IMG/VR virus record: IMGVR_UViG_3300042558_002045
Location: 1 to 27,769 of that record
Source: a virus
Strand: one strand, 5' to 3'
DNA length: 27,769 nucleotides
Positions 7,567 to 26,255 of the stretch are shown here, one piece after another. How positions within the stretch are numbered: position 1 is the first letter of the stretch; every line of letters begins with the position of its first letter. The notes beneath the pieces were generated by a model that had not been told where the DNA came from, ran no database searches, and was given only the letters and a program-made list of their open reading frames with translations. Made by a program: the position numbers and the translations under genes.

Positions 7567-7846
7567 GTTAATCAAACAGCTAGAGCAAGAGGGCTACTAT
7601 GTTATCAAACTGTCGGTCACTAATAAGAACGGTATTCCTGACATCATAGCGATACCCCGAGATAGCGATGTCAAATTCTTTGAGGTCAAACAGAAGGGCA
7701 AAAAACCGTCCGACATTCAGGTCTTTAGAATGAAAGAACTACACAATCACGGAATTAAATCATTTGTATATGACGGCACTCTATATAGCGGACTTGACTA
7801 TTTTTCTGATAGCCAGGAAGACGAAAAGAAAACAGACCTATTCTGA
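7535..7846 (+). CDS. VRR-NUC domain nuclease
   Basis: A 103-residue stand-alone VRR-NUC nuclease. The signature is clear: GIPDIIAIPRD (near residues 33-43) supplies the catalytic Asp, and KFFEVKQKGKKPSDIQ (near 47-62) supplies ExK plus the conserved Ser...Gln. The N-terminal helix (EQKVQSKLIKQLEQEGYYVIKL) matches the family start. VRR-NUC enzymes are structure-specific nucleases, and the phage stand-alone forms are thought to resolve branched DNA during replication or packaging. The gene overlaps its upstream neighbour by 32 nt, and a short out-of-frame gene may overlap its end. The family call is secure; the exact substrate is inferred. Confidence 0.88.
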   Translation: MSLLEQKVQSKLIKQLEQEGYYVIKLSVTNKNGIPDIIAIPRDSDVKFFEVKQKGKKPSDIQVFRMKELHNHGIKSFVYDGTLYSGLDYFSDSQEDEKKTDLF

Positions 7847-8006
7847 TGAAAAATATCCCGTCCTACTGATTGACGGAAAGACGTTGACGGACGAGTGTCT
7901 GCAACGATATGTAAATAAAAAAGTAAAAAATCCAAACGATTACGAAATAAGATATGAACTCAAAAATATTAAATTCAGCACGAACATCTACACAGGAACT
8001 CGCTAG
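7764..8006 (+). CDS. Possible overlapping small gene bridging VRR-NUC and DnaA-like genes
   Basis: The 107 nt between VRR-NUC and the DnaA-like gene is the largest gap in this packed operon, and a frame runs right through it. The residues after about 27 look protein-like (YPVLLIDGKTLTDECLQR, then KNPNDYEIRYELKN). The frame begins inside VRR-NUC (ATG at 7764 or 7770, or TTG at 7794) and ends inside the DnaA-like gene, with about 80 nt and 53 nt of overlap. I cannot tell a real overlapping gene from a lucky open frame, and the true start is uncertain. Function unknown. Confidence 0.35.
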   Translation: MYMTALYIADLTIFLIARKTKRKQTYSDEKYPVLLIDGKTLTDECLQRYVNKKVKNPNDYEIRYELKNIKFSTNIYTGTR

Positions 8007-8373
8007 ACTAAGACAATTGATACTCAATGGCACTGAAGAAGAATTACAAGCCGAAAGAGAGCACATCGGTATGTTATACAAACTGTCCGACCGTGATTAC
8101 TTCTCAAAAATATCTCATTATAGAGGCGAGTTTATTGTAGAGATGCGTAAACAGTATGCCGAGATATTGGTCAAAAGCGGGTTCAAAACTCAGGAAATCG
8201 CTGATTTTTTAGGACTTAAAAACCATACGACCATCTGCCATTTACTTAACACTAAGAAGTCAGGCAAAGAGACCGAGCAGTATATCAGACTGAATTTAGA
8301 ACGATTTATCGCCAATAGTATTTACCCTATGCACAAAAAAGGTGAAATTATTCTTGTTAATATCGCTGATTAA
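7954..8373 (+). CDS. DnaA domain IV-like helix-turn-helix protein
   Basis: A 139-residue protein. Residues about 67-110 fit the C-terminal DNA-binding domain of DnaA: MRKQYAEILVKSG, then the turn FKTQEIADFLGLKNHTTICHLL, in which the ...GLKNHTTIcHal... segment parallels the DnaA signature (GRDHSTVxHA). The protein has no AAA+ ATPase. It likely binds DnaA-box-like sites, possibly at a phage origin, or acts as a regulator at host DnaA sites. N-terminal residues 1-60 are helical and charged. The basis for the start is weak, because the first ATG lies inside a possible overlapping frame, but 7954 gives a plausible N-terminus. It is the penultimate gene of the left block, consistent with a control role. 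Confidence 0.72.
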   Translation: MNSKILNSARTSTQELARLRQLILNGTEEELQAEREHIGMLYKLSDRDYFSKISHYRGEFIVEMRKQYAEILVKSGFKTQEIADFLGLKNHTTICHLLNTKKSGKETEQYIRLNLERFIANSIYPMHKKGEIILVNIAD

Positions 8374-8552: not shown

Positions 8553-8582
8553 AACTCCAGGGGTTATTTCCTGGAGTTTTTT
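8551..8582. terminator. Bidirectional terminator between converging blocks
   Basis: A perfect 11-bp stem (AAAACTCCAGG / CCTGGAGTTTT) with an 8-nt loop, flanked by T runs on one strand and A runs on the other, so it works in both directions. It lies at the exact meeting point of the left (+) and right (-) blocks. The + gene's stop (8550-8552) sits at its left foot, and the - strand giant gene's stop (8564-8566) sits in its loop, so the last codons of the giant protein are part of the hairpin. Confidence 0.9.
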
Positions 8583-11500
8583 ATTACTTCAATCATGGCT
8601 TCTTTTTTAATTTCTTTTACTTTATCTTTAGCCTCACTTGTCTTATTTTTTATTTCATTAACATTTAAGATTCTATCTTTCATGGATTGAATTATGCTAG
8701 ATACACTTTTGTTGTTGTTAATACTACTTACAGTAGTTATTATACTTAAGTTAGAACCAAAAATGCTTTTTATTTTTGCAAAATCATCTTGTTTTTTCTT
8801 AGTATTCAGTCCACCAGCTAATGATATCTTATACTCATTTTCAATCATCTTATCTAACGATGCACCATTCTTAATCATGTCCTTCTGATATTGCGTCAGT
8901 TCTTTCAATCCTAAGTCCTTTTTAAAGGTGTCAGCGACCTCTTTGATGTTCGTTCTGACGGCAGTTGGTTTAGCTCGTTTTAATATCATTCTCGACATAC
9001 TAGCGGCATCTCCAGGTAATGCACCCGCTTGATGTGCTAACATCGCAATCAATCCCCATTTACCCGCCTTAACTGCGTCATCACTTGCTTCTTTGTAGGT
9101 ATATGTACCATCAGGATTCTTGAACGCTATCTTTTTATTTACAGCTAATTCATACATATCCATTGTTAACTGACTTGTTTTGATAGCCGTTGCAACAGTA
9201 CCTCCAAACATTTCTTCTTGTGGTAAATAAAATTGTGATTTTTCTACCTCTGTTTTTATATAATCTGCCTTAAAGTCATCGTAGCTTATTTCTTTTTGTT
9301 TTTTTAATATTCTACTTTCTTTATCTTTCTCGTAAGCGTCTTTTATCTCGCTTTCATTATTCTCAGTTAATTCTGATTCAACTACTTTATCAATTATCGC
9401 ATTCGCTCCCTTTATTGTTAAGAAGTCAAATATTGGTGCAGGAGAAGCGAAATCTTGAATTGTTTGCTTAGCAGCATTTTTTATTAATTCTTTTTTTGCT
9501 TTTTGATATTCCTCATCATCTTCATCACCCATTAAAGCATTTATTGCGAGTTTATACAAATACAACTGTATAGATACTTTGATAAAGTGAAACGCAACTA
9601 TTTCAGCAGTAGTAGCTGTCAATGAACTTAAAGATTCTACCGTACTTCCTTTTCTGAAAAAATTAACAGTATCAGAGTGAAGTTTTACTTTTTGATTCAT
9701 TGAGAATCCTGAGAATGGTATAAATATATTTCTAAGAACTCTTGTTACTGGCTTCTGACTAGAAAATATTTGACCTGTTGCATCAGAATCAGAAGGGTTT
9801 TGATTCTTGTCAACCATGTAATTTGCATAGGCAAAAGCATCTTTATTTACTTTATGGTTATTCCAATCTATGTCTGTATTTTCTTTTTGTTTTTTTAATG
9901 ATTGCTTGTAGTATGTTAACCATGACGCAGTTGCTGCATATTTATCACCCCTTACTAAAAATTGATTTAACCAAAAATCACTTACATTTTCAGCTCCAGA
10001 TAATATAGCATCAAAAGTTGAGCCTGCTTGTCTAAGTCCTTTCTCGTTTACTCTTTTGATATTGTCTAAACTCTCAAGACCACGGATAGATGGACTAGCT
10101 CCATTATCAATCATCCATTGAATAGCATCAGGATTAAATGAATCTCTAAAATCTAGTCTTCTTGCATTAATTAATGTATTAAGTAATGGCGGAATAGACT
10201 GAGCAGGAAATGACGCCATACTACCTAATACACGACCTGTTGCGTATTTTGATACAAGTGAAATAGCACGCTCAAGTTTTCTAGCGTCCTCGTCTTGAAG
10301 TTCTCCTTTTCCTTTTTTGATTTTTATATATCTATCTACTTTATCGACAAATCTTTGTCTGACATCTGATTCAGGAATTACTTTCTTAAACGCTTCAGAT
10401 TTTACAGCACCTCGTATCTGTCTTATTGCTTCAGCAGTGTAAATGTCAATCAATGCTTCATCTAGTGCAGCCTTGTTGTTTGAATCAAAATCAATATCTA
10501 AATATCTATTTTCTCCTGATGGTTTCTTTTTAGATTCCATTAAAACTCCTGACTTGCTTTTTTCTAAATTCATAGATGTAGCAAATGCACCTCCTTCGTC
10601 CTCTCCTAAATCTCCTTCTTTATTTGATTGGTCAATTTTAGAGAATCTATCTGGAGTATAGTTTTCATCTTTATTTAGCATTACATTATAAACACCTAAA
10701 GATGTATCATATAAATCAGAGTAGTGTTGTTGCCATTCATTAATCCACCAATCAACTGCTTCAACATTTTTAGCATCAGCATTTTTAATGACCGTATCAA
10801 TAGTTACATTATCTCCATTTAATCCTAGCTTTTCAATTATTTCATTATACATATTGCCTTTTCTCATTAAATTAGGCTCATTACTTTGAATTAATTTTTC
10901 AGCACTGTTTTTCAGTTCTTTTAATTTTCTATCGAACTCTGCTTTTTTATCAGCATCAGTTCCAAAAACTGTTCTAGCAAGAGAAGCATACACACCTCTT
11001 TCGTAAGTATTGAATGGAGTATTGAATCTTTGACCATTTGGTTTTGTTTTTCCGAACTCTTTTACGTATGAATTTATTATCTTATTACCAATAGTTTTTG
11101 CTTTAGCAACACCTTGAGATAATTTTTGAAATCCTATTTTTTCTAAAAACTCAACACCTTTTTTCTGACCAAACAATGTGTCAGCCATAGCCGTAATGCT
11201 CATTATCTGAGTAGCATAAGCCTTACCAAGTGTGTTTACTATTTTACCAAAACCTTTTATCTTAGTTAAGTTTAAGCCACGCAAGAAGCCAATAGACTTA
11301 GCTACAAATCCCTTGTTAGCTAAATCTTTCATCAAGACATTACCCTCTTGTAGTGGCACTTCGTTGCGTAGCCCTGCCGTTATGCCGTTCTCTATGAAGT
11401 TATTTGCAGCATCAACTAATGCCATTGCGTCTTTAATCTTCATGTCCGTTATGTCGAGCGACATTAATCGCTTAATGATTTCACGGTCGGACTCTGAGAT

Positions 11501-14500
11501 ATTTTCATTTTGTTTCTCAAAAGAATAGTATTTTTCTTTTATTTGTTTTCCTGTCAATACTATTTTTGTTTTTTCAAACGATTTCTTTTTACCAAATAAT
11601 CCTTTTCTAACAGTTGTTTTAACAGAAGAGCTTACGCTATCCTTTAAAAAATCAGGCACATCTCCAGTTGACGTATCTATAATAGTATATGTCTCATCAT
11701 CATTTAAAGCATCTATTTCCTCATCTCTTTCAACATTTACTTTTTCATTTAAAATGTCCTCAATAGCAGACTTAGCGACAGCAAATCTTTCTTTCAAGTC
11801 GTCCATCACGATTTTAGCACGTTCTTTAGCAGTCAATTTGTCGTCATCATTATTTTCATTTGCGACAACCTCACGTATTTCCTCGATAGACATTTTGTCG
11901 TTCAGTATGCCCGCATCAACTAGCTTCTTGTAGTAAGATAGCAAAGACTGACGCTCAATCTCTTTCTGTGCCTTTAATGCTTTCTCAACGTACGACTGAA
12001 CGTCCGCTATATTGATTGGCGTTTTAAGTTTATTGTTTGCTTCGTACTTTAATTTTTTATACTTTTCACGTATCTCATCGTATGTCGCTCTTTCGTCTGC
12101 ATCAGTTATTTTATCAACATCTACTTTACCATTTGTTTTGTAGCTATCAATATTAGGTATTTGTGCTTTCAATTCAGCTTGTTCAGCTTCATTTATTTTA
12201 GCAATTTCATCTACCTGCTTAACACCACTAACAGACGGAGAGATTGCTGCAAGCATAGCGTCTGCCATCTCGTTATACTTGTCGATATCCGTAACGAGCG
12301 ATGGGTCGATAGTTGCGAACTCTTTAGCGACCTGCGTAACGGGTGCTTGGTTTTTCGACTTTAATTTCGCTTTGATTTTAGCCTTAGCTTTAAATCCTTT
12401 GTCCACTTTGTCTGAATATTCAGCATTGGCAAACAGACGGTCCGCATAATCTAAGAACTCTTGAGTAGTATCTTCGTTATCAACGTTTAAATTAGATAAT
12501 TTTCTCAAAAGATTTGCTGATTGTGAGGCTGTTATTTTGCCAGCCTTAGCCATTGCTTTAATTGAGTCAGCTAATGCACGTTGCTTTTTCTTGATATTCA
12601 TAGCGGAATCACGAGCGGCTTTCGCCTCCATACGCAATTGGTCCTTTAATGCTACTCGTTCTGTAACAGTTACTTTTGTATTGTCTTTCTTTGATATGTT
12701 CTTTGCAACTTTCGATGCTTCAGATTCCTTTTGTTTGTTTTGAACCGCTTCAATAGTATCTACAATATCCTTTTCAGATATATCGTTATCTTTTGCATAA
12801 CTTTTTATTGCTTGTTCTAAAGACATACCAGCTTTAACTAAAATACGCACAGCTTGAATCATCTTCTTAGCGGCAGCAACGCCTAAATTCATACCTAGTG
12901 TTTCTTTCCCAAAATCATCTAGTCCCTTCTCTAGGTTAGCTAAGTAATCGTCAACTCTTTTTAATTTTGTTTTATCCTTTGTATCAAGCGACTTAACTTC
13001 CTCTAGGGTTGTTGGTTGTTCGGTTTTTTCAATAGATTTTTTTTCTGATGCTTTTATTTCTTTAGCTCCTTCAAATATTGGTTTAATAAACATTTTTACT
13101 ACATCTTCAGACTCTTGTTCTGAATAACCTTCAGACGTATAAATTGTTTTTACTTTTTTTAATAAATCCTCGAAAGAAATACCTCTTTTTGACGCTTCAT
13201 TTGCACTTTCCCTCAATTTTAATCCGTCAGCATACCAAGTGGTAGGATTACCTCTTAAAGCATCAGAGAAATCATCCATTACTTCTTTATTTGATAATTT
13301 ATCTGGAGATAAATATCTTTCAGCTACTTCCTTTGTTTCTCTAGCATCTCTTTTTTCTATAAAAGAACCAAATCCATTTGGCATCTCTTTCTCTTTTTTA
13401 ATTAAAGCATCAACAGATTCGTTTACTTTTTCTAATGGTATATTAAAAACGCTATCACGCTCTCTTTTTTCCATTTCTTTTTCAAGAGCATTATATTCTT
13501 TTAAATCAGATTCAGATTGAAATTGAGAAGGAATACCATTGTGTATTTCCTCAATTTCTGACATCCTTTTCTCTATTTCCTCATCAGTCTTGTTTAAGAT
13601 TGTCTTCTGTTCGTTTGACTGCTTTTTTGCTTGAGTAGTAGACTCTAATAAAATAGGATATTTTGTTTTTAATATACCATAAGTGTTTGATTTTGCTCCA
13701 TCTCTTGAAGCTGATTCTTTTTGAAGTATTCCGTCAAAACCTAATGCTTGAATGGCTTTTGAAAATGCTTCTGAAGCCTCAGGTTTGTTCATTTTTGTTG
13801 TGAATAATTCTAAATTTTCACCAGCTTTAGATTCAAAATCAGATATTAATTCTAATGCTTTAGAAATATTTTCTCCTTTTAATTTACCAGACTTAGTTAA
13901 ATCAGCAGCTACACTTCTAAGATTATCAGCAATACCAGAACCTCTCACGTCTGTTGCTAATTTATATGGCATCTCAATAGGATTAGATGGTTTTTCAACC
14001 TCTAAGCTTTCTACATTTAACTTACCGTCATCTGATGTACCAGCATAATTTTTAGCTACTTCTTCATCTTCAGCCACCCATAATGTAGATGAATTATCAG
14101 AATCCATAACATTATTTCCTATTCCTCTAAAAACAGCTATTTTTTCTTTAGGCAACAACGGAGTAATCAGTTTATCGTACTTATCGTATATCTCATTATA
14201 CTTAGCTCCGTCTTCAGACGCCATGATTTTCTCTCTATCTACCTTTCCGTCAACCTTATAGTCGTCAATATTCGGTATAGCTTCCGATAGTTCGGTTTGT
14301 TCGTCTGCTCGTAATTTCTCTACTTCTTTTTGGTTTTCCCCGCTTTCGATAGTGCTATCGCTACCGCTTGTTTCTGCGGTTTTCCCGCCTTCATTTCCGT
14401 TCTCACGTTCTGTGAGATTACTTTCTGTGATGTTCCCTTCTTTAGTGGCATTTTTACTGATATTAGTTAATTCATTATTTATTTCTGTGATTCTTTCTTT

Positions 14501-17500
14501 CTGAGGCACAATTAACGCCTCGTCTTTTCCTCTAATTTCTTGCTCAAGTTTTGATTTCTCAACCAATAAGTCAAGCGTCTTTGGTTTATCTTCTTCTCTA
14601 AGACCGTCAGGCAATTTTTCAAATAGACTGACAGTATTATTGATTGCATCAACTCTTTCTTGTCCTTCTTCTTTTGTTATCTCTCCTGATGCAATTTTTG
14701 TTTTTAAATCATTCAAAATCATAACTCTCATGTCAGAGTCATTGAAAATCTTCTCAGCGAACGCTAATTTCTCAGGGTCTTTGAATGCTTTGCTATATCC
14801 AAATTTACCTGCGTCAACTGCAACTTTAGGCATACTGAAAGCTAGACCACCAAGACCCTCCATGTAAGCACCTGATATTACTGCGTCAGTTATGTCAGCA
14901 ATAGTATTCGGTACTTCTTTGAACATCTCTTTACCTTTAATAAGGTTGTAAGTATTCTTTAATGTTATGCCTGTTAACTCTTGCATAGCACCCGTTTTAG
15001 CCTCGCTAGCGAAGTCTTTACCTAGAGTATAAGCAGATGATAGGATAAACTTTTTAAAGTTCGTTTGAAGAGCTAAATCCATTGCCTCGGTTGTAGCACC
15101 AGGTTTTAATCCAGCGATAGTTTTAAGAATTAAATTCTTAGAAACATCTTTGCTTATTTTCCCTGTGTCAATCAAAGCATCAGTACCTAACTTCTCTAGC
15201 TTACCATTTATGTATGCGTAAATCAAAGCTAACCCCTCTTTCTCTGCCGTTGTTGCACCGTCCCATTCAGGACCTTTCATCTCAGATTTAAGCTCATTGT
15301 ACGATAGAGCAAAGAATGGCAATTCTTCAGATAAAGCCATCAACTTAGTACCACCTCCTACTATTTTACCTAAGCCTGAACCAGTAGCCATTGCTCCAAG
15401 AGATTCTACTCCGCCAAATGCAGCTTTAGTTAAATCCCATCTGTCCTCACTTTTCATGAACTCCTCAGTAGTGTAATCACTACCTAGTAAGGATATCAAA
15501 GCATTTGATGCGAAGTTATCGTCTCCACCTGAGATATTGTTTAGTATAGCATCAGGTAAAGCACCTACACCTTTCAATACAGAGTTAACCAATCCGCCCA
15601 TAACATTACCTCTATTTTCATTGAAGGCAATATATAGACCTGCGTTTTTCTCGTTCTCTTTATTTAACGCTTTGACAGCAGACATATCGGCAGATAAGTT
15701 TTTGCTTACTGACTCAATACTTTTTGCTCTTTCGTCAAGCTCTTGCTTTTGTCTTAATAATTCAGGGTCTGTATTTAATTGTTCAGGTGTTATCCCTTGC
15801 TGTTTAAGTCTATTGTAAAATCTCTCTGAATCTTGTTTTAATTTTAACACAGAGTTATTTAACTGCTTATTTTGTTTAGATAAGTCATTCAAATAAGTAG
15901 CTTGTACGTCAGCTTCTTGTTTTAAAACATTTTGATTAGCTACTGCTATTGTAGCTACTTCATCTTTTTGTTTTTGTGTTTTAGCACTATTAGACAAATC
16001 GCTCAATCTTCTTTGAGCATTTATTTTATTTGTCATAATAGTATTAGCCGCTATCTCTTGCTTAAATTCAGCAGGAGCAGATAGTTTATTTTTAGCGTCT
16101 AATGGATTAGAAATGATTGGTCTTTGCAAGTCAGATGTTGACTGCAATTTTATTTGCTCAGGAGTAAGTTTTTCTTGTTCATATTTAGAATTTCTATAAT
16201 TATCCTCAGCTTGCTTAACGGCTTCTCTTTCTTTATCAATATAATCACCAGTAGATTGATTTTCAATCATCCATCTTCTTAGTTTTGCAGATTCAGATGC
16301 GTTAGCTCCTTCTGACCAGTTATCCAAAGAAAAAGTGATTGGTTCTCCACCTCTTGAAGAAGTAACTGTTACTTCATCTTTACCAAACTCACCACTTTCA
16401 TAAAAATTGAATCCATATTTACCGTACATTTTTTGCAAGTACGGCACAGCATCCTCTTCAGCTAAATCAAACATCTTAGAGTTTACTAGTTTAAAACTAT
16501 TTATAGCTGATTCTTGACGTGCGATTTGAGCATCACGTTTTGCTTTAGCATCATCATTAGGCTCTACTTTATTGCCCGTCCAATTATTCAATGCGTTGAT
16601 TGAGCCCTCGTCAGATATAACTGTGAACTCTTTTTGACCCTTACGTTTTACTTCCCAGACTTGTTCTTTTGTTATTGGTAATTTTGAAATTCTATATTCA
16701 TTATCTTCCTTACCTTTCTCAGGATAGCCAACGTAAGTTTGCACACCTTCATTTGTAGATGCTTGGGCTTTAAAATGTTGATTTAAAGTTTTAATTCTTG
16801 TAGGGTCGGTGATATTTTTATATGTCTCACCTAATTCTTTTGAAGATTGTATTTTTTGATAAATATCATCAGGACCATCAAAAGATGATACCTTTACCCC
16901 TAGTTTACCAGCTAACTGCGTTAATGCTAATTTAGCGTTCTTTTGTTTTTCACCGCCAGAGAAACCACCTTCAGCAACTCCTTCTTTTGATAAGGATAAA
17001 TATTTGTTGGCTTTTCCGATTACAACATCTTTATTTTTAGTGTTGTATTCTTGCCATACGTCAACACCGTCAACATTTTTTAGGACGTAAGTTTTATCTT
17101 CAAATCCTTTGATTGGAAGACCTTTATATATTTCGCCTTTCTCTGTTCCTTTATTTAGGTCAACAGGAGCCTCAGCCTTTTTTACTGAAGATGAAGCCGC
17201 AGGCTGTTGTTCCGTTTTGACGGACGATTCCACAGAAGGTATAATACCCTCCCAAGGAGAACGAGAAACCAAACTTTTTTTTTTAGCGGGCGGTTGAACT
17301 GCCTTTGGTTGTGCTCCTATTTTAAATTCAGGAAATTTTGAAAATAACTCGTTCTCATCAGCGTACTTCCCACTGTTTGAGGTTGCTACAAAATCCTTTA
17401 ATGAGTTAACATCATACCCTTTCAATTCAGGGAATTTAGATAATAATACTTTTTCATCTGAATATTTACCGCTATTTGATGTAGCTACAAAATCTCTTAA

Positions 17501-17521
17501 TGATTGCTTTATATCTGGCAT
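8564..17521 (-). CDS. Giant ejection (internal virion) polyvalent protein with ART-like segment, 2985 aa
   Basis: The longest gene of the window, last in the virion block. Residues 7-36 and 40-67 are two copies of a 33-residue-period repeat ([16 protein letters not shown]...LxSKFPE). Residues about 1130-1290 look like an ADP-ribosyltransferase: an IAVFRGIGN strand (Arg), [17 protein letters not shown] (Ser-Thr), and a late GFDGI followed by [11 protein letters not shown]. Two 45-residue repeats (EQxELxxxIPNIDxYK...) occur at about 1074-1118 and 1780-1824. A hydrophobic, Gly-rich segment near 690-730 ([20 protein letters not shown]) and a helix near 2625-2660 ([20 protein letters not shown]) could act on membranes. 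It follows small and medium ejection-type proteins, as T7 gp16 follows gp14 and gp15. It is likely ejected into the host. I see no lysozyme or protease motif. Composition is patchy, which suggests assembly from modules. Seen: repeats and motifs. Inferred: ejection and ART activity. Confidence 0.8.
12050..12184 (-). repeat. IPNID repeat, copy 2 (giant protein residues 1780-1824)
   Basis: Second copy of the 45-residue segment, [16 protein letters not shown] through KYKKL, same length as copy 1 (135 nt each), same strand and frame. Conservation is centred on IPNIDxYKxxGKVD and on the closing YxEIxxKYxKL. No other copy was seen in the giant protein. Confidence 0.75.
14168..14302 (-). repeat. IPNID repeat, copy 1 (giant protein residues 1074-1118)
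   Basis: A 45-residue segment, [16 protein letters not shown] through KYDKL, just before the ART-like region. It aligns without gaps with a copy 662 codons further along the gene, and I count 25 of 45 identical residues. It may mark a module boundary. Confidence 0.75.
17321..17503 (-). repeat. Tandem N-terminal repeat in giant protein
   Basis: Two tandem copies encode [16 protein letters not shown]...LLSKFPE and [16 protein letters not shown]...LFSKFPE, 33 residues apart, at residues 7-36 and 40-67 of the 2985-aa protein. The copies are nearly identical over their first 14 residues. The same motif seems to recur as a header of large polyvalent proteins in Bacteroidetes phages, so it may be a packaging or docking tag. 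That role is inferred. Confidence 0.85.
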
Positions 17522-17540: not shown

Positions 17541-19118
17541 TTATCTTACGTTTCCTCCTTTTACTGTCCCTGATGACTTGTTGTTATTTTTTGGCTTTGC
17601 TGTTCCTGATTTTTGTTCTGTATTCCCATAAGACTTTTCTGTGGAGAAATTAAGTCTTCCATTTCTTTGTTGAAATAATTCTTTACCATCATAGTAATTT
17701 TTAGGAGCGTAAGGGGTTGTCCCTGTATCAAACCTTAAATATGTCGTGGCAAGATTTGGTAATTTCAAAGTTTCAATAGGGTTTACACCTCCTGTTTCAA
17801 TTAAAACATCGGTCACATTTATCCCATCATCAGTTACTTTATCATAAACACGCACATAAGGTTTTCCTTGTGCATTGACACCTCTTTTAAAAATATATTT
17901 ATCCGTGTCCCAAGCTGAGAAATCACCATTAACAAAAGCATTTGTCGTACCTACATAAACATCGTAATTCAAATCTTCTTGAGTTTTCTTTTTGTTTTGC
18001 TGGTCTTCTGTAAGACTTTTATCTCTATTTTGTTGTACTTTTTTACCAGTACCTTTTTCATCATATCCTATTTGACTCATTATTTCATTAGATACGACAT
18101 TATATGCAGCATTCTTTAATTCCTCAGTAATAACAGGATTCCAAACTCCATTGTCAGATTGTTTTAATTGAATCATTTTAGACTCAATTTCTCTTCTTGA
18201 TTTTGCTTCATCAAAAGGACTTTCTTTAGTTGCTCCGAGGCGAAGTATGTCAAGTTGGTCTTCTATCTTCTTTTTCTTGCTTTCCTCAGATGTGTAGACC
18301 ATATATCCTAAATTTGAGTTATCAACTAAGATGCTTGCAATAGCTTTAGGGTTATTATTGTTTATGTATCTTCCTGCAATTTGTTTTTTATATGTTTGAA
18401 AATCAGGGTCTGATTCAACAGCAGAAATATCCTTTGTTGAGCCGTCAGCGTTAATTGTAAAAATAGAGTAATCACCTAATTTAGCCACGTCTAATTTCAC
18501 ACCTTCGCTCAAGTTTAATCTGTTGGTAGCAATATTATTCACATTCATTTGACCAGCTAAATCAAAAATACTTCCTTCAACAATTTTACCGTTAGCGTCT
18601 GTTTGTGCAGTCGCTAGTTTACCGTTAGGACCAACGAATACTTGCTTGTTAGGAAGTTCTGCCCAAAAATTTTGCATTTCAGCATACAATTCTGTTTCAA
18701 TACCTGATGCTATTGGTAATTCACCGTTTGGTCCTGGCTCTAATCTTTTCTTTTCTTCTAATGTTCTATCGTCAATTGTTGTCATTAAGCCTATAAGCCC
18801 ATTATGGTCAGTTCTGATATTCTGCATTTCTAAACGATAATTAGAAGGAGAAATTTCTCTATTATTTAACTTTCTATTAAGCTCGTACATATGCTGCCTA
18901 AGAGTTACTGCTGTTTTAGCGGCAAAATCAGTAGTCCCTGTAAAGCTAAACGGTTTGTGAGCATCTAATAAAGCATCATTATCGGTAAGAAGTTTCTTAT
19001 CTGACTCACGAACTTGCTTTACTTTAGACTCTAAACCTGATACTTTAGTAGCTAAATCATTAATACTACCTGCAAAGTCTGTGCCTTCACGTTCTTGAAA
19101 TCCTGCGTACTCTGCCAT
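17541..19118 (-). CDS. Probable ejection/cargo protein, 525 aa
   Basis: A hydrophilic protein I do not recognise by motif. Residues about 10-50 look like a coiled coil (INDLATKVSGLESKVKQVRESDKKLL), followed by a long helical part (VTLRQHMYELNRKLNNREIS) and an extended central region with few hydrophobic patches. The C-terminus is low-complexity and basic (KPKNNNKSSGTVKGGNVR). It lies between a small Gly/Ala-rich membrane-active-type protein and the giant protein, as T7 gp15 lies between gp14 and gp16, so an internal virion or ejection role is the best guess. It begins 1 nt after the upstream stop and is probably translated from the promoter ahead of the small protein. A tail or cargo protein without ejection is also possible. 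Confidence 0.7.
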   Translation of the reverse strand: MAEYAGFQEREGTDFAGSINDLATKVSGLESKVKQVRESDKKLLTDNDALLDAHKPFSFTGTTDFAAKTAVTLRQHMYELNRKLNNREISPSNYRLEMQNIRTDHNGLIGLMTTIDDRTLEEKKRLEPGPNGELPIASGIETELYAEMQNFWAELPNKQVFVGPNGKLATAQTDANGKIVEGSIFDLAGQMNVNNIATNRLNLSEGVKLDVAKLGDYSIFTINADGSTKDISAVESDPDFQTYKKQIAGRYINNNNPKAIASILVDNSNLGYMVYTSEESKKKKIEDQLDILRLGATKESPFDEAKSRREIESKMIQLKQSDNGVWNPVITEELKNAAYNVVSNEIMSQIGYDEKGTGKKVQQNRDKSLTEDQQNKKKTQEDLNYDVYVGTTNAFVNGDFSAWDTDKYIFKRGVNAQGKPYVRVYDKVTDDGINVTDVLIETGGVNPIETLKLPNLATTYLRFDTGTTPYAPKNYYDGKELFQQRNGRLNFSTEKSYGNTEQKSGTAKPKNNNKSSGTVKGGNVR

Positions 19119-19119
19119 G

Positions 19120-19827
19120 TTATTGTGCTTTATTTTTATTATCTAAAATAGTCTGAAGCAAAGAAGGGTCTAAACCTTCAAGTAGATTAGGATTGTTTTC
19201 TAATATTTGTAATATTCCCTCTTGATTATAAGCACTTGTATTTCCTGTCGTTTGAGCACCTGCTCCTGCACCCGCATTTGCTTTTTTAGTATTAAGATAC
19301 GCCAATATATCAGGGTCTAGTGCTCCCGCTACTGTACCTAATCCACTAATTGCTCCCTCAATATTTTTGCTCGCCATATTTGCATAATTAGCGGCAGCCT
19401 TTTGCGAACCTGCTAACTGACTATTTACCAATGCTCTTTGTGCTATAATATTTCTATTTTCAACCTCTTGAGCGTTCGTTAGAACGGCAGCGTCACGTTG
19501 GTAGTTTTGTTTAGACTGCATCAAAGCAGCCTCAGCGTTGGCATCTAAAACGCCTTTATTTAGTGCTGCAATTTGAGCGGCAGCCTCAGGACCACCACCT
19601 TGAATAGCTTGAGTAGCAGATGCCGATTGTTGAGCGGTTTGCTGATTTAAAAGTTTCATTATATCAGGAGATTGAAGGGCAGCCATTAGATTGGTCTCCT
19701 TCATTCCTTTGAGTTGATTTGCATATACAGCTGCTGCCTCAGAAGCCGCCCTAGAATTTTGATTATTCTTTATAGCCATTCCAGCTGAAACAAGTGCACC
19801 TGCACCTGCTATTATTGCTCCAATCAT
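19120..19827 (-). CDS. Small membrane-active ejection protein, 235 aa
   Basis: A protein that opens with a Gly/Ala-rich hydrophobic helix (MIGAIIAGAGALVSAGMAI) with small residues at regular spacing, a glycine-zipper pattern that suits membrane insertion. The rest is Ala- and Gln-rich helix (ATQAIQGGGPEAAAQIAALN, QRALVNSQLAGSQKAAANY), followed by an acidic C-terminal end (LEGLDPSLLQTIL). This matches in style the first internal virion proteins of podoviruses (T7 gp14, P22 gp7), which enter the host envelope first. It is preceded by the strongest promoter candidate of the window and starts the probable ejection unit. Seen: sequence style. Inferred: role by position and resemblance; no catalytic motif. 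Confidence 0.72.
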   Translation of the reverse strand: MIGAIIAGAGALVSAGMAIKNNQNSRAASEAAAVYANQLKGMKETNLMAALQSPDIMKLLNQQTAQQSASATQAIQGGGPEAAAQIAALNKGVLDANAEAALMQSKQNYQRDAAVLTNAQEVENRNIIAQRALVNSQLAGSQKAAANYANMASKNIEGAISGLGTVAGALDPDILAYLNTKKANAGAGAGAQTTGNTSAYNQEGILQILENNPNLLEGLDPSLLQTILDNKNKAQ

Positions 19828-19878: not shown

Positions 19879-20613
19879 CTAATAGTATGACTTAAATACT
19901 GTTGTGCTTACAGAAAATATTTCGGACAGTGTAATAGACTGCTCAAGCGGTAGGGTTAACTTCACCTCCATATAGTAGCCTCTGCAACCGTATGACTCAG
20001 CGACAGGGTCTTTTGAGAATAGAACGAAATCACCGATAGCAGGCACGTTAGCCACAGCATCAACCGTTACAGTTGTTGGAGTGTGCGATACAATTGTGCC
20101 AATTTCAAATAAGTCTGTTCCATCATCAAATAGTAATAAGTCACCAACAGCGATAATACTGTCAATCTTAAAAGCGAACGTAAGAGTGTTCGTTGCAATA
20201 GATAGTAGTTGACCTAATCCCTGCACGGATAATGACCTAGCGTCAAAATCATCTACATTTCTTCTGATGTATGAGTACCAACGACCTTCCTTGTTTTTGA
20301 AATAGTCAGCGGATATTTGACCGTCATTTATATCGGTCGTCACCTCTACATCCCAAGCGTCAGTGCCATAGATTGCTAACGCATTAAAGACGTCAACATT
20401 GGCATAATCTTCGTTAAAAATAGTTGTGATTTCAGTCGGATATACCGTCCCGTAAAACTCGTTGTGTGTTTCATTTACCCAATGTTTATATAGACTACCT
20501 TCATTCCAAGTATAGAAATTATTATTTAATCCAAGCATCCAGTCAGGGATATACGACCATCTGCTCGTCCATCCCTTATCTGTTACTGAGTATGTTAGTG
20601 TTGTAATTTCCAT
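19879..20613 (-). CDS. Tail/fibre-type structural protein with YIPDWMLG motif, 244 aa
   Basis: A 244-residue beta-rich protein. Its first 60 residues (DKGWTSRWSYIPDWMLGLNN, FYTWNEGSLYKHWVNET, EFYG) match a pattern I recognise in structural proteins of crAss-like and Flavobacteria phages: KGWxSxxSYxPDWMxGxNNxFYTFxxGxLYxHxxNExxNxFYG, followed by a TIFN turn. A second half (residues about 130-220) has alternating strands with GDLLLFDDGTDLFEIG and VPAIGDFVLFSKDP. It is a likely tail spike or fibre-adaptor component. It ends at the promoter of the ejection genes. Seen: motif; inferred: tail location. Confidence 0.7.
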   Translation of the reverse strand: MEITTLTYSVTDKGWTSRWSYIPDWMLGLNNNFYTWNEGSLYKHWVNETHNEFYGTVYPTEITTIFNEDYANVDVFNALAIYGTDAWDVEVTTDINDGQISADYFKNKEGRWYSYIRRNVDDFDARSLSVQGLGQLLSIATNTLTFAFKIDSIIAVGDLLLFDDGTDLFEIGTIVSHTPTTVTVDAVANVPAIGDFVLFSKDPVAESYGCRGYYMEVKLTLPLEQSITLSEIFSVSTTVFKSYY

Positions 20614-20622
20614 ATCGCAAAT

Positions 20623-22389
20623 TTAGCAAGAATATTTGTCAATCACTTGACCGAATTGATTTATTTGATAACTATATGTCGATGGAGATACATTGTAGTA
20701 TTTATCACCACCTGTAAAATATTCTAAACCTCTGCCGTCAAGATATATTGTATTGCCAATATCAGGCAAGTCATCGCAACCGTCATGGTACATTATCACT
20801 AGCTCAGGCGTTGCCACCGAGCAGGCGGACGTTCCGTCCACTTGGAAGTTCTTTCTATCAATTAAGAACGGCTTCATGGTCATCGCTGGTACTGATGTAA
20901 TTGTAAATGTGTACTCTGTACTTGTGCCAAAACAGTTTGTAGCTTTTAGAGTAATATCTCTTGAGCCTCCTTCAGTTGGTGTACCCTCAATAGAGCCTGT
21001 TACTGTGTTGAACAACAACCCTCCGATGATTGAGCCGTCTTGACAAACGCCTGATAAAGTAGCACTACCGTCCCCCGTTACTAATGTCGGTACAGTTGAT
21101 GAGCAAATTCTTGCTGTCGTGTTGTAATTAACAAGTATTTTGCCATCACAGCCGTCACATTCAGTATAAGTAAAGTATGAGCCCTTTTGCCCGCCATCTA
21201 GTGTGTACTCATCGCAATCTGTAACAACCTCCCAAGATGTAGGGTTATTGTCCGCTTGTACTTTGATACTTACAAAGTTACCTATCACTACTTGAATATC
21301 TCCTTGAGTAATATCAGGCTCGGCTGATTCATCACAATCACACCCTCCTTGAGAATCCATAAGCCCATTAGGTAGAACTGAGATAAAAATTCCTCCCGTT
21401 GGCGGTGGCACAACTAATGACGTTTCACTAATTAAGTGAAGACTGCCTGGCGTTGGGCTATAAACATCAGTGCCTGCATCGTCCAAAAATATTGTATCAC
21501 CAACAATCGGTAATGCGTTATTACCATTATGGTAAACCCTAGTATTTGGCACTTGAGAACAAACATTGCTTAAATTTCCATCATCTGTATCTATGTAAAA
21601 TTCTGTTAGGTAAGTCGGAATTTTTTCGGCTGTCATCTCAGTATTTGACAATGGCATATAAACAACAAGCTGTGCTGCACCGTCCGTCAAGTATTTCTTA
21701 AAAGTAAACGGCAGTAATTCACCATTGTTTACCGTGCCATCGTAAGGCTCTTGCAATTTTATATCTTCAGGTGCAATACCTAAATCAATCAGTTCGTTGT
21801 AATTTCCTACTGAATTAACGCCAATATATCCAGTATCTAAAATTGCTATGCCTGCATAAGAAAAGACATACCTAGCGACACCTGATGGTGTTTCAATATT
21901 TACACCTGCTATGCCTAGTTTTGTTCCGTAATCTATATCAATAAATCTAACTGTGTTGTCTCCGCCACCCTCAAACGATACGTCACCTGCATCTAAATTA
22001 TCTACATAATCCCAAATTAAATACAAGTACTCTAATCCGTCTGGGTTTTCATAAGTAAATGTTCCCTCATATCTGTCCCCAACCAAAGTTAAAGTTATTT
22101 CAGATGCTGCTTTAATCATAGCCTCTCTGTCATTACTTGTGAACACTTGGTTTGAAACAAGATATAAAAACTTGTTATTCATTGTTGGCGCAAAATCATA
22201 CTTTTGCTGTTTTAATCCAGTTGGGTTGCTTGCAATAACAGCTACTTCATCACCATCGTTCGGTATGTAATCTACACCGCCAAATCCTGTTTGAGTGTTA
22301 AATAATGCGATACCACTATCGTTGAATTGAATTTGACTCACATCAAACACATCGCTTCCATCGTATGAATATTTCTGATTTAAAATCAT
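20623..22389 (-). CDS. Tail/fibre-type protein with Ig-like domain and duplicated C-terminal module, 588 aa
   Basis: A 588-residue beta protein. It has an extended N-terminal part (residues 1-265), then module A (277-350: NTRVYHNGNNALPIVGDTIF, LDDAGTDVY, ending GGC), a short DCDE-rich linker, a bacterial Ig-like segment (about 425-500: FNTVTGSIEGTPTEGG, ITLKATNCFG), and module B (523-588: LVIMYHDGCDDLPDIGNTIY, LDGRGLEYF, ending KYSC). Modules A and B are repeats of the same fold, each framed by Cys. Such LPxxGxTIxLD modules occur in surface proteins of Bacteroidetes phages and may bind glycans or other surface ligands. It shares its start with the stop of the 1288-aa gene (1-nt overlap). Seen: repeats and Ig-like pattern. 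Inferred: host-surface contact. Confidence 0.7.
   Translation of the reverse strand: MILNQKYSYDGSDVFDVSQIQFNDSGIALFNTQTGFGGVDYIPNDGDEVAVIASNPTGLKQQKYDFAPTMNNKFLYLVSNQVFTSNDREAMIKAASEITLTLVGDRYEGTFTYENPDGLEYLYLIWDYVDNLDAGDVSFEGGGDNTVRFIDIDYGTKLGIAGVNIETPSGVARYVFSYAGIAILDTGYIGVNSVGNYNELIDLGIAPEDIKLQEPYDGTVNNGELLPFTFKKYLTDGAAQLVVYMPLSNTEMTAEKIPTYLTEFYIDTDDGNLSNVCSQVPNTRVYHNGNNALPIVGDTIFLDDAGTDVYSPTPGSLHLISETSLVVPPPTGGIFISVLPNGLMDSQGGCDCDESAEPDITQGDIQVVIGNFVSIKVQADNNPTSWEVVTDCDEYTLDGGQKGSYFTYTECDGCDGKILVNYNTTARICSSTVPTLVTGDGSATLSGVCQDGSIIGGLLFNTVTGSIEGTPTEGGSRDITLKATNCFGTSTEYTFTITSVPAMTMKPFLIDRKNFQVDGTSACSVATPELVIMYHDGCDDLPDIGNTIYLDGRGLEYFTGGDKYYNVSPSTYSYQINQFGQVIDKYSC
20626..20823 (-). repeat. 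Duplicated Cys-framed module, copy B
   Basis: Residues 523-588, the C-terminus of the same protein: Cys, YHDGCDDLPDIGNTIYLDGR, GGDKYY, INQFGQVIDKYSC. It lacks the PPPTGG insert of copy A and so is the more compact form of the module. Confidence 0.65.
21340..21561 (-). repeat. Duplicated Cys-framed module, copy A
   Basis: Residues 277-350 of the 588-aa protein: Cys, then RVYHNGNNALPIVGDTIFLD, DDAG, a variable insert with PPPTGG, and a final GxxxxxxxxC. It aligns with copy B at its core, YHxGxxxLPxxGxTIxLDxxG. Confidence 0.65.
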
Positions 22390-25300
22390 TATTGTTTTAT
22401 TTCGTTATTAAATACAGCTACAACAACACTACCTTTAGGACCTCTTGCTTGATTTAGAACGAAACTTTTCGTCTGTCCTCCGCAAAAAGTAATAGTTATC
22501 AAAAGTTTTCTGTTTATATTGCTTCCGTTAGAATCTATAAGTGCAAAAATATCAACATTTCCATAACCACTTGTTACTGGTAAATCTATCCAATCAGTGC
22601 CAAAACCAAAAGACTGTGCTTCTATCTCCCAATCAGTATTTGACTCGATTGAGAACATATAATATGAGCCTCCTGCTGTATTAGATTCAACTGTTGTTCC
22701 TCTTTTATTTATATCCAAGAAACACTTATACACACTTTTATCATTAACAGCCAAAGTATATAAATTCAAATAAGGGTCAAACGCACCGAGCTTCTGAGTA
22801 TTCAGTCCTTCGTTCATTATCTCTCTAAAATACTCAACCATGTAAATAGTTGATATATCTACAATTATATCTTCTTGCAATTGTAATACAGCACCACGCC
22901 TAGTGTCTGTAAAGAAAATATCTTTTCCGTACACACTAAACGACTCAGGGTTTCTTGAGATACCGAACTCACCAGGCAAAGCTATTTGATTACCAAGCAC
23001 TTCAGGAATAGATACCACCTGACCACCACCAATAGCGTCAAATAAAATGTTCTTTCCATAAAGAACTTTTGATACTTTGTTCTCTTGCAATACCAATAGA
23101 TTTGTGTCTCTTGGGTACAAATGTTGTATCGGTCCGAAATCTCGTTCGAGATACTTGAAGTTAGAAATACCTAAGTTAAACTCGTTCAATCTATTGACAG
23201 ATGAGTTTTCTTTGAATACACCACTATAAGAAACTGATGAATCATTTCTTACTTGCTGATATTGGTCAACGGACGTACTAGCTCTCAAACTGTAATCTAA
23301 AGTAGTGGCATTAAAATCATCCTTTATTCTATTCGACTCTAGTCCATTGCCAAAACAATATCCATTGTAGTCGCTATTTGCACTGCTAGGTATATTCAAC
23401 TGAACGATAGCAGGAATGCCGTTATTTTGGTCTGTTTCATTTGTGCCTAATATTCTTAATCTGCCTGGGATTTCAGGACCAGAACCAGGGAAAGTTAAAT
23501 TTATAACGACTGAATATCTATTCTCAATATACACAACCTCGTAAGAACCACCTATATTTGATGAGAATACCTCCACTACATCACCAACCGTGAAATAGTG
23601 AGGATATCTGTAATCTAATTGCGTAAGTCTTGTGAGACCATTAGCGAACTGAAAGTCATCGTAATCCCACATAACCTTATGTTTACCGTCAACAATTGGG
23701 TATGTTCGTGTTGTCTCATGGAATATATCAATATCGGTCGCTTGAGCTTCAGACTCGCAGAACAATTTCTTGCTCGTTTGTTGGATTGATAGTCTGGCTT
23801 TTATTACATTCAAATTAGTTATACTTGAATTACTTTGATATCCAAATCCTTGGATAATCATATATACAGGTCCAGTATTGTTATTTTGAAATAATTGCTC
23901 GCCACCCCCAATAGAAACCATATCTCCTCGTCTGAACGTTACTCCTGTTGCACCAATATTTATACCGTCATCATTATATTGAACGAATTGTTGCCAAGCA
24001 CCTGACTCAATAAACCATTCCTCAATATTTTCAAATAATTGAGGAGACTGAAATGGCTGAATACCTGCTTGCTGAGAAGCATTTTGTGAATCCTGAATGA
24101 TTTCTATTTGTATTTGAGCACCTGATTCAATTTGACCAGCATCTCCCAATACAACTGCTCCACCCCAATCTGCCAGTGTATTTGTACTAACCTGATTTGG
24201 TATTCCTACCCCTCCAAAGTAATTTCCTTGAAGATTTCCGCTTTTTCGACAATTAATTTTCCATCTATCTCCAGGAACTAGACCCGTATTAATTACCGAT
24301 GGAATATTCCATAGGATAAAACAAACATCTTGACCGAATACATTTATGCCTGTCGATGAAGTAGTTACGGGCACGTTCTCTATCCAACCACCCGTTGCTG
24401 ATACGTCAATTGTATATCTAAAAGTCGTAGGTGTTTGAACCTCAATAGTTATTCTTAAATCTGTATTACCAGTGAATACATTATTAAATAATTGTAACCC
24501 GTTTGGATTTGAGTCACCATAATAAATAGGCTGCTCGCAAAAAGAAGATGGACTTTGAATTACTGGTATACCAAAAGCATTCCCTTCTTGTTCATCATTA
24601 AATATAACCAAAGAGTTAGGATTGAACTCTGAAACAGTGTTTACTTTAATCTTAAAATAAAGACCCTCAAGTTCAGTTGAAGCATTGCCTGTAATAAAAC
24701 CAGCAGGTTTGTTCTCAAGCTCTAAAACTTTATATTTCTTATTAGTTAGTGTTGGTCCTGAACCGTCAGACTTAAATATAATGTACTCGCCAACTTTAAA
24801 TTTGTCAATGTCAGATTGGTTAATCAAAAAATATCTAAATAGCCCGTCCGCATAAAACAATATAGGAAAGATGTTATAGTACAAATTCTTAGACTGCTTA
24901 ATACCAAAACGATAGTTTGTCGCCCAACATGGCGGATTATGTCTAATATTTACCAATATACTATTTGCCGTCACAGAATTTTGAGGCGGAATGTAAAGCG
25001 TATCTGTTTTAGATTGAGACGCATCTGTATGTACTGAAGTTAACGCAGTAGTCATTCGACCTTTACCATCAGTATAGAACATGACAACCTCATAATCTCT
25101 ATCACTTCTGAAAGTTTGTGCGGCAGAATTAACAGCAACAGCCTCAGTCTTTAAGTCCAAGAAATAATCTATCTTAATAGGCTGATTATTGCAATCTGTA
25201 ATATCTCTAAATTGAACGTAATTCCCGTATGCCAATCTATTACCGACAGTGCTTTGTGCTTTCGCAAGTAAAGGCACATTATCAAATAGTCTTAACACCT

Positions 25301-26255
25301 GCTCGTCAGGTAGTACTGCGTATATTTTGTTATTCTTAAACTCAATTGTGCTACTTGTATTATCACCAATAACTAACTCTGATTTAGAATATGTATCAAC
25401 AATACTTACGTTGATATTGCTTGTATCTCTGACTAATACTTGAATAGCCTCCACAAACTCATCGCCAGTCTCAAAAGAAACTCTTACAGCGTTAAATTTA
25501 TTGACCATGGCTTTATTAAATCCCTCACCAAAGTCATACGCAAATTCTTTTGCACCAAATGACACAGCTGAGAATGGTGACATACTACTGAACTGACCGT
25601 CAATATACTTGTATCTATAAGAAAAGTACAAAAACTTCTCAGACATATTGTTCGACTGAGGGTCTGACGAATCGTTAAATAACTCAACATGTGGAGAGTA
25701 TAAAGGCGGAGTCAATATAACGGGTATATCTTTCTCAATTCTAACATCATCTACATCGTATGATTTTGCTCTCTCAATATTTACCTTACGTGGTTGATTT
25801 AGATTGTCAGTCCAAAACAAAAATCCGTTCTGTGCATTTATAGCGACATAGCTCAACCCTGTAATAATATAATCTTTACTGAAATTCAATAAACTAGGCG
25901 TATCAGCGTCAGGCTTATTGCACTGTAAAACTCTTGTTGATATGCCAGTTGATTCGCTGTATTCATAAATTCCATCAAAGAAATCTCCTGCAACGAACCA
26001 ATAAATGACACTTCGAGCATCATATTCAATAGCACCAATAGTTCTTGCACCGTCAATCTCACGACCTGATAACTCCTCAATATCAGCAACATTCAAGTTC
26101 CCTTTAATATTTTGACCTGCTCCAACGTCAGACCCGTCTGAAGTACCAACTCTAAAGTTCAACGCATCACGATATTGACCGTTAGGCACAAGCCTTTCGT
26201 CAAAATCCTTGTTCATTGTTCCGCTAGAGAAATTTTTAGTTTGGTCTTTCATCAT
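22389..26255 (-). CDS. crAss-like-type tail stabilisation/tubular protein with C-terminal BACON domain, 1288 aa
   Basis: A long beta-rich protein. Its N-terminal segment NKDFDERLVPNGQYRDALNF and the later FGISRNPESFSVYGKDIFFT, DTRRGAVLQLQED and GAFDPYLNLYTL are the pattern of the large tail tube/stabilisation protein (T7 gp12-like place) of crAss-like and related phages. Residues about 1200-1272 form a BACON domain: NTDWEIEA, TDWIDLPVTSGYGNVDI, INRKLLITITF, SFVLNQARG. BACON domains are usually linked to carbohydrate or mucin contact in gut and marine Bacteroidetes. A start at MMKDQT has an A-rich leader. It sits between the second portal-vertex protein and the 588-aa fibre-type protein, consistent with a tail nozzle. 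Family call by pattern; BACON call is firm. Confidence 0.82.
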   Translation of the reverse strand: MMKDQTKNFSSGTMNKDFDERLVPNGQYRDALNFRVGTSDGSDVGAGQNIKGNLNVADIEELSGREIDGARTIGAIEYDARSVIYWFVAGDFFDGIYEYSESTGISTRVLQCNKPDADTPSLLNFSKDYIITGLSYVAINAQNGFLFWTDNLNQPRKVNIERAKSYDVDDVRIEKDIPVILTPPLYSPHVELFNDSSDPQSNNMSEKFLYFSYRYKYIDGQFSSMSPFSAVSFGAKEFAYDFGEGFNKAMVNKFNAVRVSFETGDEFVEAIQVLVRDTSNINVSIVDTYSKSELVIGDNTSSTIEFKNNKIYAVLPDEQVLRLFDNVPLLAKAQSTVGNRLAYGNYVQFRDITDCNNQPIKIDYFLDLKTEAVAVNSAAQTFRSDRDYEVVMFYTDGKGRMTTALTSVHTDASQSKTDTLYIPPQNSVTANSILVNIRHNPPCWATNYRFGIKQSKNLYYNIFPILFYADGLFRYFLINQSDIDKFKVGEYIIFKSDGSGPTLTNKKYKVLELENKPAGFITGNASTELEGLYFKIKVNTVSEFNPNSLVIFNDEQEGNAFGIPVIQSPSSFCEQPIYYGDSNPNGLQLFNNVFTGNTDLRITIEVQTPTTFRYTIDVSATGGWIENVPVTTSSTGINVFGQDVCFILWNIPSVINTGLVPGDRWKINCRKSGNLQGNYFGGVGIPNQVSTNTLADWGGAVVLGDAGQIESGAQIQIEIIQDSQNASQQAGIQPFQSPQLFENIEEWFIESGAWQQFVQYNDDGINIGATGVTFRRGDMVSIGGGEQLFQNNNTGPVYMIIQGFGYQSNSSITNLNVIKARLSIQQTSKKLFCESEAQATDIDIFHETTRTYPIVDGKHKVMWDYDDFQFANGLTRLTQLDYRYPHYFTVGDVVEVFSSNIGGSYEVVYIENRYSVVINLTFPGSGPEIPGRLRILGTNETDQNNGIPAIVQLNIPSSANSDYNGYCFGNGLESNRIKDDFNATTLDYSLRASTSVDQYQQVRNDSSVSYSGVFKENSSVNRLNEFNLGISNFKYLERDFGPIQHLYPRDTNLLVLQENKVSKVLYGKNILFDAIGGGQVVSIPEVLGNQIALPGEFGISRNPESFSVYGKDIFFTDTRRGAVLQLQEDIIVDISTIYMVEYFREIMNEGLNTQKLGAFDPYLNLYTLAVNDKSVYKCFLDINKRGTTVESNTAGGSYYMFSIESNTDWEIEAQSFGFGTDWIDLPVTSGYGNVDIFALIDSNGSNINRKLLITITFCGGQTKSFVLNQARGPKGSVVVAVFNNEIKQ
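22440..22658 (-). other. BACON domain (residues about 1200-1272 of the 1288-aa tail protein)
   Basis: The order of conserved positions is Trp in NTDWEIE, Trp-Ile in TDWIDL, a Gly-rich TSGYGN turn, Asn-Arg in INRKL, ITITF, and a closing SFVLNQA strand. This is the normal layout of one complete BACON domain, at the very C-terminus, with only about 16 residues after it. Confidence 0.8.

What the first reader, a model, noticed from the sequence alone, without database searches (positions are those of the whole stretch)
13650..14140. ADP-ribosyltransferase-like segment inside the giant ejection protein
Residues about 1130-1290 have the spacing of an ADP-ribosyltransferase (VFRG strand, STLW...EEVAKNYA, late GFDGI and a following [11 protein letters not shown] strand). 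Virion-borne ARTs such as T4 Alt enter with the DNA and modify host proteins at once. Here the ART is buried in a 2985-aa protein whose neighbours look like ejection proteins, so the effector would be delivered as part of the ejection machinery. The key glutamate cannot be fixed by eye.
Basis: partly seen in the sequence, partly recalled or inferred. Interest (0 to 1): 0.65.

Follow-up and report, generated by a model that had tools for sequence, protein, structure and literature searches.

The report
Swappable enzyme cassette in phage cargo protein
A crAss-like phage carries, inside a giant protein that is probably packed in its particle and pushed into the host with the DNA, a divergent ADP-ribosyltransferase-type enzyme domain sitting in a slot where related phages carry other host-attacking domains or none; such injected multi-domain proteins are known, but this enzyme variant and the small repeated joint in front of the slot are new.

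Summary
ORF 8564-17521(-) (2985 aa) contains [21 protein letters not shown] and [11 protein letters not shown] at the stated place (residues 1126-1293). Alone, the segment scores only weakly against Pfam ART-PolyVal (15.5 bits, cut-off 31.2). Related sequences settle the fold: it is linked by profile comparison to an intermediate family (E=1.7e-4; 0 of 150 shuffles), which links to above-threshold ART-PolyVal domains (E=8e-6; 0 of 150). A 16-row AlphaFold model (pLDDT 76, pTM 0.72) has an ART-like strand order; its confident matches are unnamed phage proteins, and no PDB ART matches. The active site is not R-S-E. By alignment it is R1132-W1148-D1263 (possibly E1269), a variant of the H-Y-D pattern of ARTs in 'polyvalent' phage proteins. 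The giant protein follows a crAss-type muzzle gene and two cargo-sized genes, as gp47 does in crAss001, where gp47 is in the virion. The ART is a cassette: bounded upstream by a ~60-aa module that in about 50 phages precedes ARTs, ddrB-ParB, zincin-like, SAM-lyase or other domains; naturally absent in one relative; 80% identical to another phage whose flanks are about 30% identical; under purifying selection (dN/dS about 0.15). Best reading: an injected polyvalent effector. Catalysis and packaging are inferred.

The parts
8564..17521 (-). giant 2985-aa polyvalent cargo-type protein
   Evidence: single intact ORF; conserved N-terminal scaffold (28 ORFs) and C-terminal scaffold (33 ORFs) in related viral contigs
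13643..14146 (-). divergent ADP-ribosyltransferase-type domain, residues 1126-1293
   Evidence: profile chain to ART-PolyVal, sub-threshold Pfam PF18760, AlphaFold pLDDT 76 / pTM 0.72 on 16-row alignment, BFVD fold matches
14126..14128 (-). R1132, beta-1 position (H in canonical H-Y-D ARTs)
   Evidence: alignment A6, invariant in three orthologues
14078..14080 (-). W1148, beta-2 position (Y in canonical H-Y-D ARTs)
   Evidence: alignment A6, invariant in three orthologues
13733..13735 (-). D1263 of FDG, candidate beta-5 acidic residue
   Evidence: aligned with GYDA/GYDG/GIDG of canonical members; invariant in three orthologues
13715..13717 (-). E1269 of QKE, alternative catalytic acid
   Evidence: invariant in three orthologues; aligned with the conserved D of the L042-type family
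14150..14332 (-). ~60-aa junction module, copy 1 (residues 1064-1124), directly before the ART
   Evidence: hmmsearch and tblastn: 52 viral contigs, always inside long ORFs, followed by varied domains
12029..12214 (-). junction module, copy 2 (residues 1770-1831), diverged
   Evidence: blastp and alignment A2
13091..13615 (-). domain after the ART (residues 1303-1477) that follows the module directly in the ART-less relative L018
   Evidence: blastp L018 706-870 vs W 1303-1477, 48% identity, E=1e-38
17541..19118 (-). 525-aa protein in the position of crAss001 gp46 (534 aa) cargo C2
   Evidence: gene order and size; no sequence match
19120..19827 (-). 235-aa protein with N-terminal hydrophobic segment, position of transmembrane cargo C1 (gp45)
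   Evidence: hydropathy 2.01 over residues 1-19, gene order
19879..20613 (-). crAss muzzle C-terminal domain protein
   Evidence: PF25729 E=1.9e-15
22389..26255 (-). crAss-type muzzle protein
   Evidence: PF25731 E=1.7e-10, phrog_14478 E=2.8e-189

Best explanation
Residues 1126-1293 form a divergent ADP-ribosyltransferase-type domain of the ART-PolyVal superfamily, carried as an exchangeable cassette in a polyvalent cargo protein of a crAss-like phage. Most likely the giant protein is packed in the capsid cargo zone, threaded through the portal and tail ahead of or with the DNA, and refolds in the host. The ART domain then uses NAD+ to modify a host macromolecule and favour early infection. 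Shown here: homology, ART-like predicted fold, cassette behaviour, purifying selection, late/cargo gene context. Inferred: packaging, ejection, catalysis and target.
For: Pfam PF18760 is the best family though sub-threshold. Profile chain window family -> L042-type family (E=1.7e-4, 31.5 vs shuffled maximum 19.7) -> canonical ART-PolyVal set (E=8.4e-6, 37.7 vs 18.5). The L042-type member L107 itself matches PF18760 over nearly its whole length (E=0.002) and L042 has a weak Scabin-like hit. AlphaFold pLDDT 76.1, pTM 0.72 with beta-beta-alpha-beta...beta-beta order. BFVD matches at probability about 1.0 to uncharacterised phage proteins, with a named 'PolyVal ADP-Ribosyltransferase' and an LPD-containing polyvalent protein lower in the list. 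L003 carries this domain and a second, H-Y-type ART-PolyVal domain in the same protein. The same post-module slot holds above-threshold ART-PolyVal in other phages. dN 0.13 and dS 0.85 between window and L002. Muzzle and cargo gene order matches crAss001 gp44-gp47; gp47 was detected in crAss001 virions (PMC10172136); crAss001 gp47 is homologous to module-bearing giant ORFs L029/L030 (E=2e-13).
Against: The direct comparison of the window family with canonical ART-PolyVal is not significant (8 of 150 shuffles score as high). No solved ART structure was matched by Foldseek or by sequence. Two of the three H-Y-D residues are substituted, so the domain could be inactive. No virion data exist for this phage. 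The window giant protein has no direct sequence match to crAss001 gp47.
Confidence: 0.68

Rival explanations
1. The domain keeps the ART fold but has lost catalysis (H to R, Y to W) and serves as an NAD+/ADP-ribose- or protein-binding module, for example a decoy or sensor.
For: Two of the three H-Y-D residues differ; the helical insertion is specific to this subfamily.
Against: R1132, W1148, D1263 and Q1267-K-E1269 are invariant across three orthologues at 62-80% identity with dN/dS about 0.15. Arg at beta-1 is normal in R-S-E ARTs, and the RES family is active with S and E replaced by Y and N (PMC9503650).
Confidence: 0.2
2. It is an Alt-like R-S-E ART with a Q-x-E motif (R1132, S1144/S1145-T1146, Q1267-x-E1269).
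For: VFRG, SST and QKE are invariant or nearly so.
Against: In the alignment the strand-2 active-site position falls on W1148, three residues after the ST pair. All detectable relatives are of the ART-PolyVal/H-Y type. No match to R-S-E families in Pfam, NCBIfam or PDB.
Confidence: 0.12
3. The segment is a structural or ejection part of the cargo protein with no enzymatic role.
For: It sits in a probable ejection protein; the weak top PDB match is a cyanophage pre-ejectosome chain (E=0.18).
Against: It is dispensable: naturally absent in L018, found in 3 of about 80 related loci, and replaced in the same slot by ddrB-ParB, SAM lyase, Tox-MPTase2 or SprT-like domains.
Confidence: 0.06

Closest known systems
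ART-PolyVal (PF18760) / Tox-ART-HYD2 domains of polyvalent proteins (Iyer et al. 2017, PMC5512222)
   Same: Same kind of host protein (giant, multi-domain, next to virion genes), same strand pattern (HG/RG, Y/W-x-x, A..Y helix, xDG strand, last YxIV-type strand), tandem ARTs in one protein (L003)
   Different: H replaced by R and Y by W; a roughly 70-residue helical insertion; score below Pfam cut-off
T4 Alt (R-S-E ART packaged and injected)
   Same: Inferred delivery logic: virion-borne ART acting at once after injection
   Different: No sequence link, not R-S-E, and it is one cassette of a 2985-aa polyvalent protein rather than a stand-alone enzyme
crAss001 cargo proteins gp45, gp46, gp47 (PMC10172136)
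   Same: Gene order muzzle -> TM protein -> about 530 aa -> giant protein; gp47 homologous to module-bearing giants L029/L030
   Different: crAss001 gp47 is annotated as a putative RNA-polymerase subunit; no direct match to the window giant protein
Polymorphic toxin systems (PMC3482391)
   Same: Constant carrier with interchangeable effector domains behind a conserved joint
   Different: No secretion signal or linked immunity gene examined; carrier is a phage cargo protein

Membership tests
ART-PolyVal (PF18760, H-Y-D) | Pfam score above curated cut-off 31.2 | tested here: not met
   15.5 bits, E=0.03; L003 orthologue 16.3 bits
ART-PolyVal (PF18760, H-Y-D) | histidine in strand 1 | tested here: not met
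   R1132 in all three orthologues
ART-PolyVal (PF18760, H-Y-D) | tyrosine in strand 2 | tested here: not met
   W1148; aromatic character kept
ART-PolyVal (PF18760, H-Y-D) | aspartate in strand 5 | tested here: inconclusive
   D1263 of FDG aligns with the D of canonical members, but the intermediate L042 family does not keep it, so which acid is catalytic is open
ART superfamily fold | homology or fold match to accepted ARTs | tested here: met
   two-step profile chain, each step 0 of 150 shuffles; AlphaFold SSE order; BFVD matches; direct one-step comparison and PDB Foldseek negative
R-S-E ARTs (T4 Alt type) | R in beta-1, S-T-S in beta-2, E/Q-x-E in beta-5 | tested here: inconclusive
   R1132 and QKE present, ST pair out of register by alignment
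Polyvalent proteins | several disparate effector-type domains in one large polypeptide near virion genes | tested here: inconclusive
   2985 aa beside muzzle genes; homologues carry ddrB-ParB, ART-PolyVal, SAM lyase, metallopeptidase-type domains. In the window protein itself only the ART is recognisable, so the multi-effector feature is met by its homologues rather than by it.
crAss cargo proteins | presence inside virions | not testable with these tools
   needs proteomics of an isolate; crAss001 gp47 is in virions (PMC10172136)
crAss cargo proteins | gene order after muzzle | tested here: met
crAss cargo proteins | sequence homology of the window giant to gp45-47 | tested here: not met
   no hit by phmmer or iterated profiles; homology only for module-bearing relatives L029/L030

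The most novel reading that the evidence does not exclude
Crass-like phages of aquatic Bacteroidota have a 'polymorphic ejection protein': constant N- and C-terminal scaffolds with an internal effector slot opened by a dedicated ~60-aa joint module, into which host-modifying cassettes (an R-W-D type ART here) are exchanged by recombination, so related phages inject different first-strike effectors.
Probability: 0.5. Interest if true: 0.65.

Novelty: new variant of a known kind. Interest (0 to 1): 0.5.

Why it matters
Injected host-modifying enzymes decide the first minutes of infection. If true, this puts ART effectors, and a swappable slot for many other effectors, into the ejected cargo of crAss-like phages, whose early host takeover is little understood. 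It also gives an ART subfamily with an unusual active site to test. The elemo isolates on Flavobacterium sp. BAL314 encode a module-bearing giant protein with an ART-like stretch in the same slot, so the question can be tested in a cultured phage-host pair.

Tried and rejected
First AlphaFold run with a 3-sequence alignment gave pLDDT 48, and Foldseek found nothing: discarded as uninformative. Sequence searches of PDB with the domain and with both family profiles found only noise. tblastn of the ART segment in 50,697 phage records found nothing, and genome-contig scans found no relatives. Alt-like R-S-E reading considered, disfavoured by alignment. SHOCT, TFIID and similar weak Pfam hits in other pieces were judged noise. 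Direct homology of the giant to crAss001 gp47 tested and not found. YN00 dN/dS failed numerically; NG86 values used. The large dS of the scaffold regions is near saturation, so recent exchange of the ART cassette rests mainly on 80% versus about 30% amino-acid identity.

Full report
Observation. The domain spans about residues 1126-1293 (window 13643-14146).

Context. Upstream on the same strand lie a crAss-type muzzle protein (22389-26255; PF25731 and phrog_14478), a 588-aa protein, a protein with the crassvirus muzzle C-terminal domain (19879-20613; PF25729), a 235-aa protein with an N-terminal hydrophobic segment and a 525-aa protein. In crAss001 the muzzle gp44 is followed by gp45 (842 aa, putative transmembrane), gp46 (534 aa) and gp47 (2341 aa), after which the strand changes. 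The window has the same layout with extra genes between. gp45, gp46 and gp47 were detected in crAss001 virions and are proposed to leave the capsid before the DNA (PMC10172136). I found no direct sequence match of the window giant to gp47, but giants L029/L030, which carry the same junction module, are homologous to gp47 residues 85-517 (E=2e-13), and an ORF in L035, which also holds a module-bearing giant, matches the region of gp45 that includes its portal-bound part.

What the domain is. Pfam alone gives ART-PolyVal at E=0.03, below threshold. Orthologues exist in L002 (80%) and L003 (64%). L003 has, after its orthologue, a second ART-PolyVal-type domain with HG, GLYFTD, IDGI and NYVVFD signatures. 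In L042, directly behind the junction module, lies another ART-like domain, and its family of 11 sequences bridges the two. Window family to L042 family: hhalign E=1.7e-4, score 31.5, maximum of 150 column shuffles 19.7. L042 family to canonical set (L019, L026, L027 and others, with PF18760 scores up to 75 bits): E=8.4e-6, score 37.7, shuffled maximum 18.5. The direct comparison window family to canonical set was not significant (8 of 150 shuffles). With the 16-row alignment AlphaFold reached pLDDT 76.1 and pTM 0.72, with strands 4-11, 23-27, 45-53, 58-60, a helical insertion, and strands 141-147 and 154-161 (add 1123). Because the alignment contained ART sequences, the model is not wholly independent of the homology claim. 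Foldseek found no PDB match below E=0.001. In BFVD three matches had E below 0.001: one is a 54%-identical homologue, the next has TM-score about 0.65 at 17% identity. A named PolyVal ADP-ribosyltransferase appears at rank 15 (E=0.12).

Active site. Aligned with H-Y-D members, beta-1 H is R1132, beta-2 Y is W1148, and the strand-5 D is D1263. E1269 in QKE is an alternative acid: the L042 family does not keep the FDG aspartate but has a conserved D at the position of E1269. R in beta-1 is typical of the R-S-E clade, and ARTs with altered triads such as RES are active (PMC9503650), so activity is plausible but not shown.

Cassette behaviour. A ~60-aa module (residues 1064-1124; diverged second copy 1770-1831) precedes the ART. 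It was found in 52 viral contigs, always in long ORFs, and crAss muzzle-type genes lie in the same fetched stretch in 30 of 64 loci (the 64 include overlapping short loci of the same contigs, so 30 is a lower bound). What follows differs: in 48 post-module stretches Pfam found ART-PolyVal (4), ddrB-ParB (2), DUF3293 (2), putative zinc peptidase DUF5700 (2), S-adenosylmethionine lyase, Tox-MPTase2 and SprT-like (1 each), at E up to 0.01. These are per-member E-values without correction for 48 members, so weak single hits may be chance. In L018 the module (73% identical) ends at residue 701, and residue 706 onward matches window residue 1303 onward: the same neighbours without the ART. The window and L002 ARTs are 80% identical while their scaffolds are 30-32% identical; NG86 dN 0.13, dS 0.85. 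Not every giant has the module: 19 of 28 N-scaffold ORFs do, and L002 has the ART without a recognisable module, so the module is not strictly required.

Interpretation. This fits the polyvalent proteins of Iyer et al. 2017 (PMC5512222): large, multi-domain, encoded beside virion genes, thought to be injected, with ARTs as their commonest protein-modifying domain. The crAss setting, the R-W-D variant and the junction module are, to my knowledge and in the papers searched, not described. The library holds only open-licence papers, so absence there is weak evidence.

Confidence. ART-type fold about 0.85; packaged and ejected about 0.75; catalytically active about 0.6.

Noticed in passing
L003 residues 1395-1720: Second ART-PolyVal-type domain (H-Y-D like) in tandem with the divergent one, then a HEFSH zincin-like motif in the same protein.
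   Followed up: partly
window 14150-14332 and 12029-12214: Two copies of a ~60-aa module with no hit in Pfam, NCBIfam or PHROGs scans of the whole protein; the module is present in about 50 viral contigs at the head of a variable domain slot.
   Followed up: partly
L006 (MT497078.1, Flavobacterium phage elemoE_10-3D) residues about 1085-1190 of its 3667-aa giant protein: ART-like stretch (TYRG...VTWVSDKKEYSEGY) behind the same module in a cultured phage annotated 'structural protein'.
   Followed up: no
L020, L023, L025: The giant protein appears split into two ORFs; in L020 and L023 one carries the module plus a ddrB-ParB domain and the other the C-terminal scaffold.
   Followed up: no
window 22389-26255 and 19879-20613: The crAss muzzle N-terminal and C-terminal domains are recognised on separate genes with a 588-aa protein (weak Ig-like hit) between them.
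   Followed up: no
L120 gp47 residues 1703-1862: crAss001 gp47, annotated as putative RNA-polymerase subunit, matches PHROG 298 (exonuclease) at E=1e-6, so it may itself be polyvalent.
   Followed up: no
window 7954-8373 (+): Small protein with a weak DnaA C-terminal helix-turn-helix match (E=0.007), next to a VRR-NUC nuclease gene (7535-7846).
   Followed up: no
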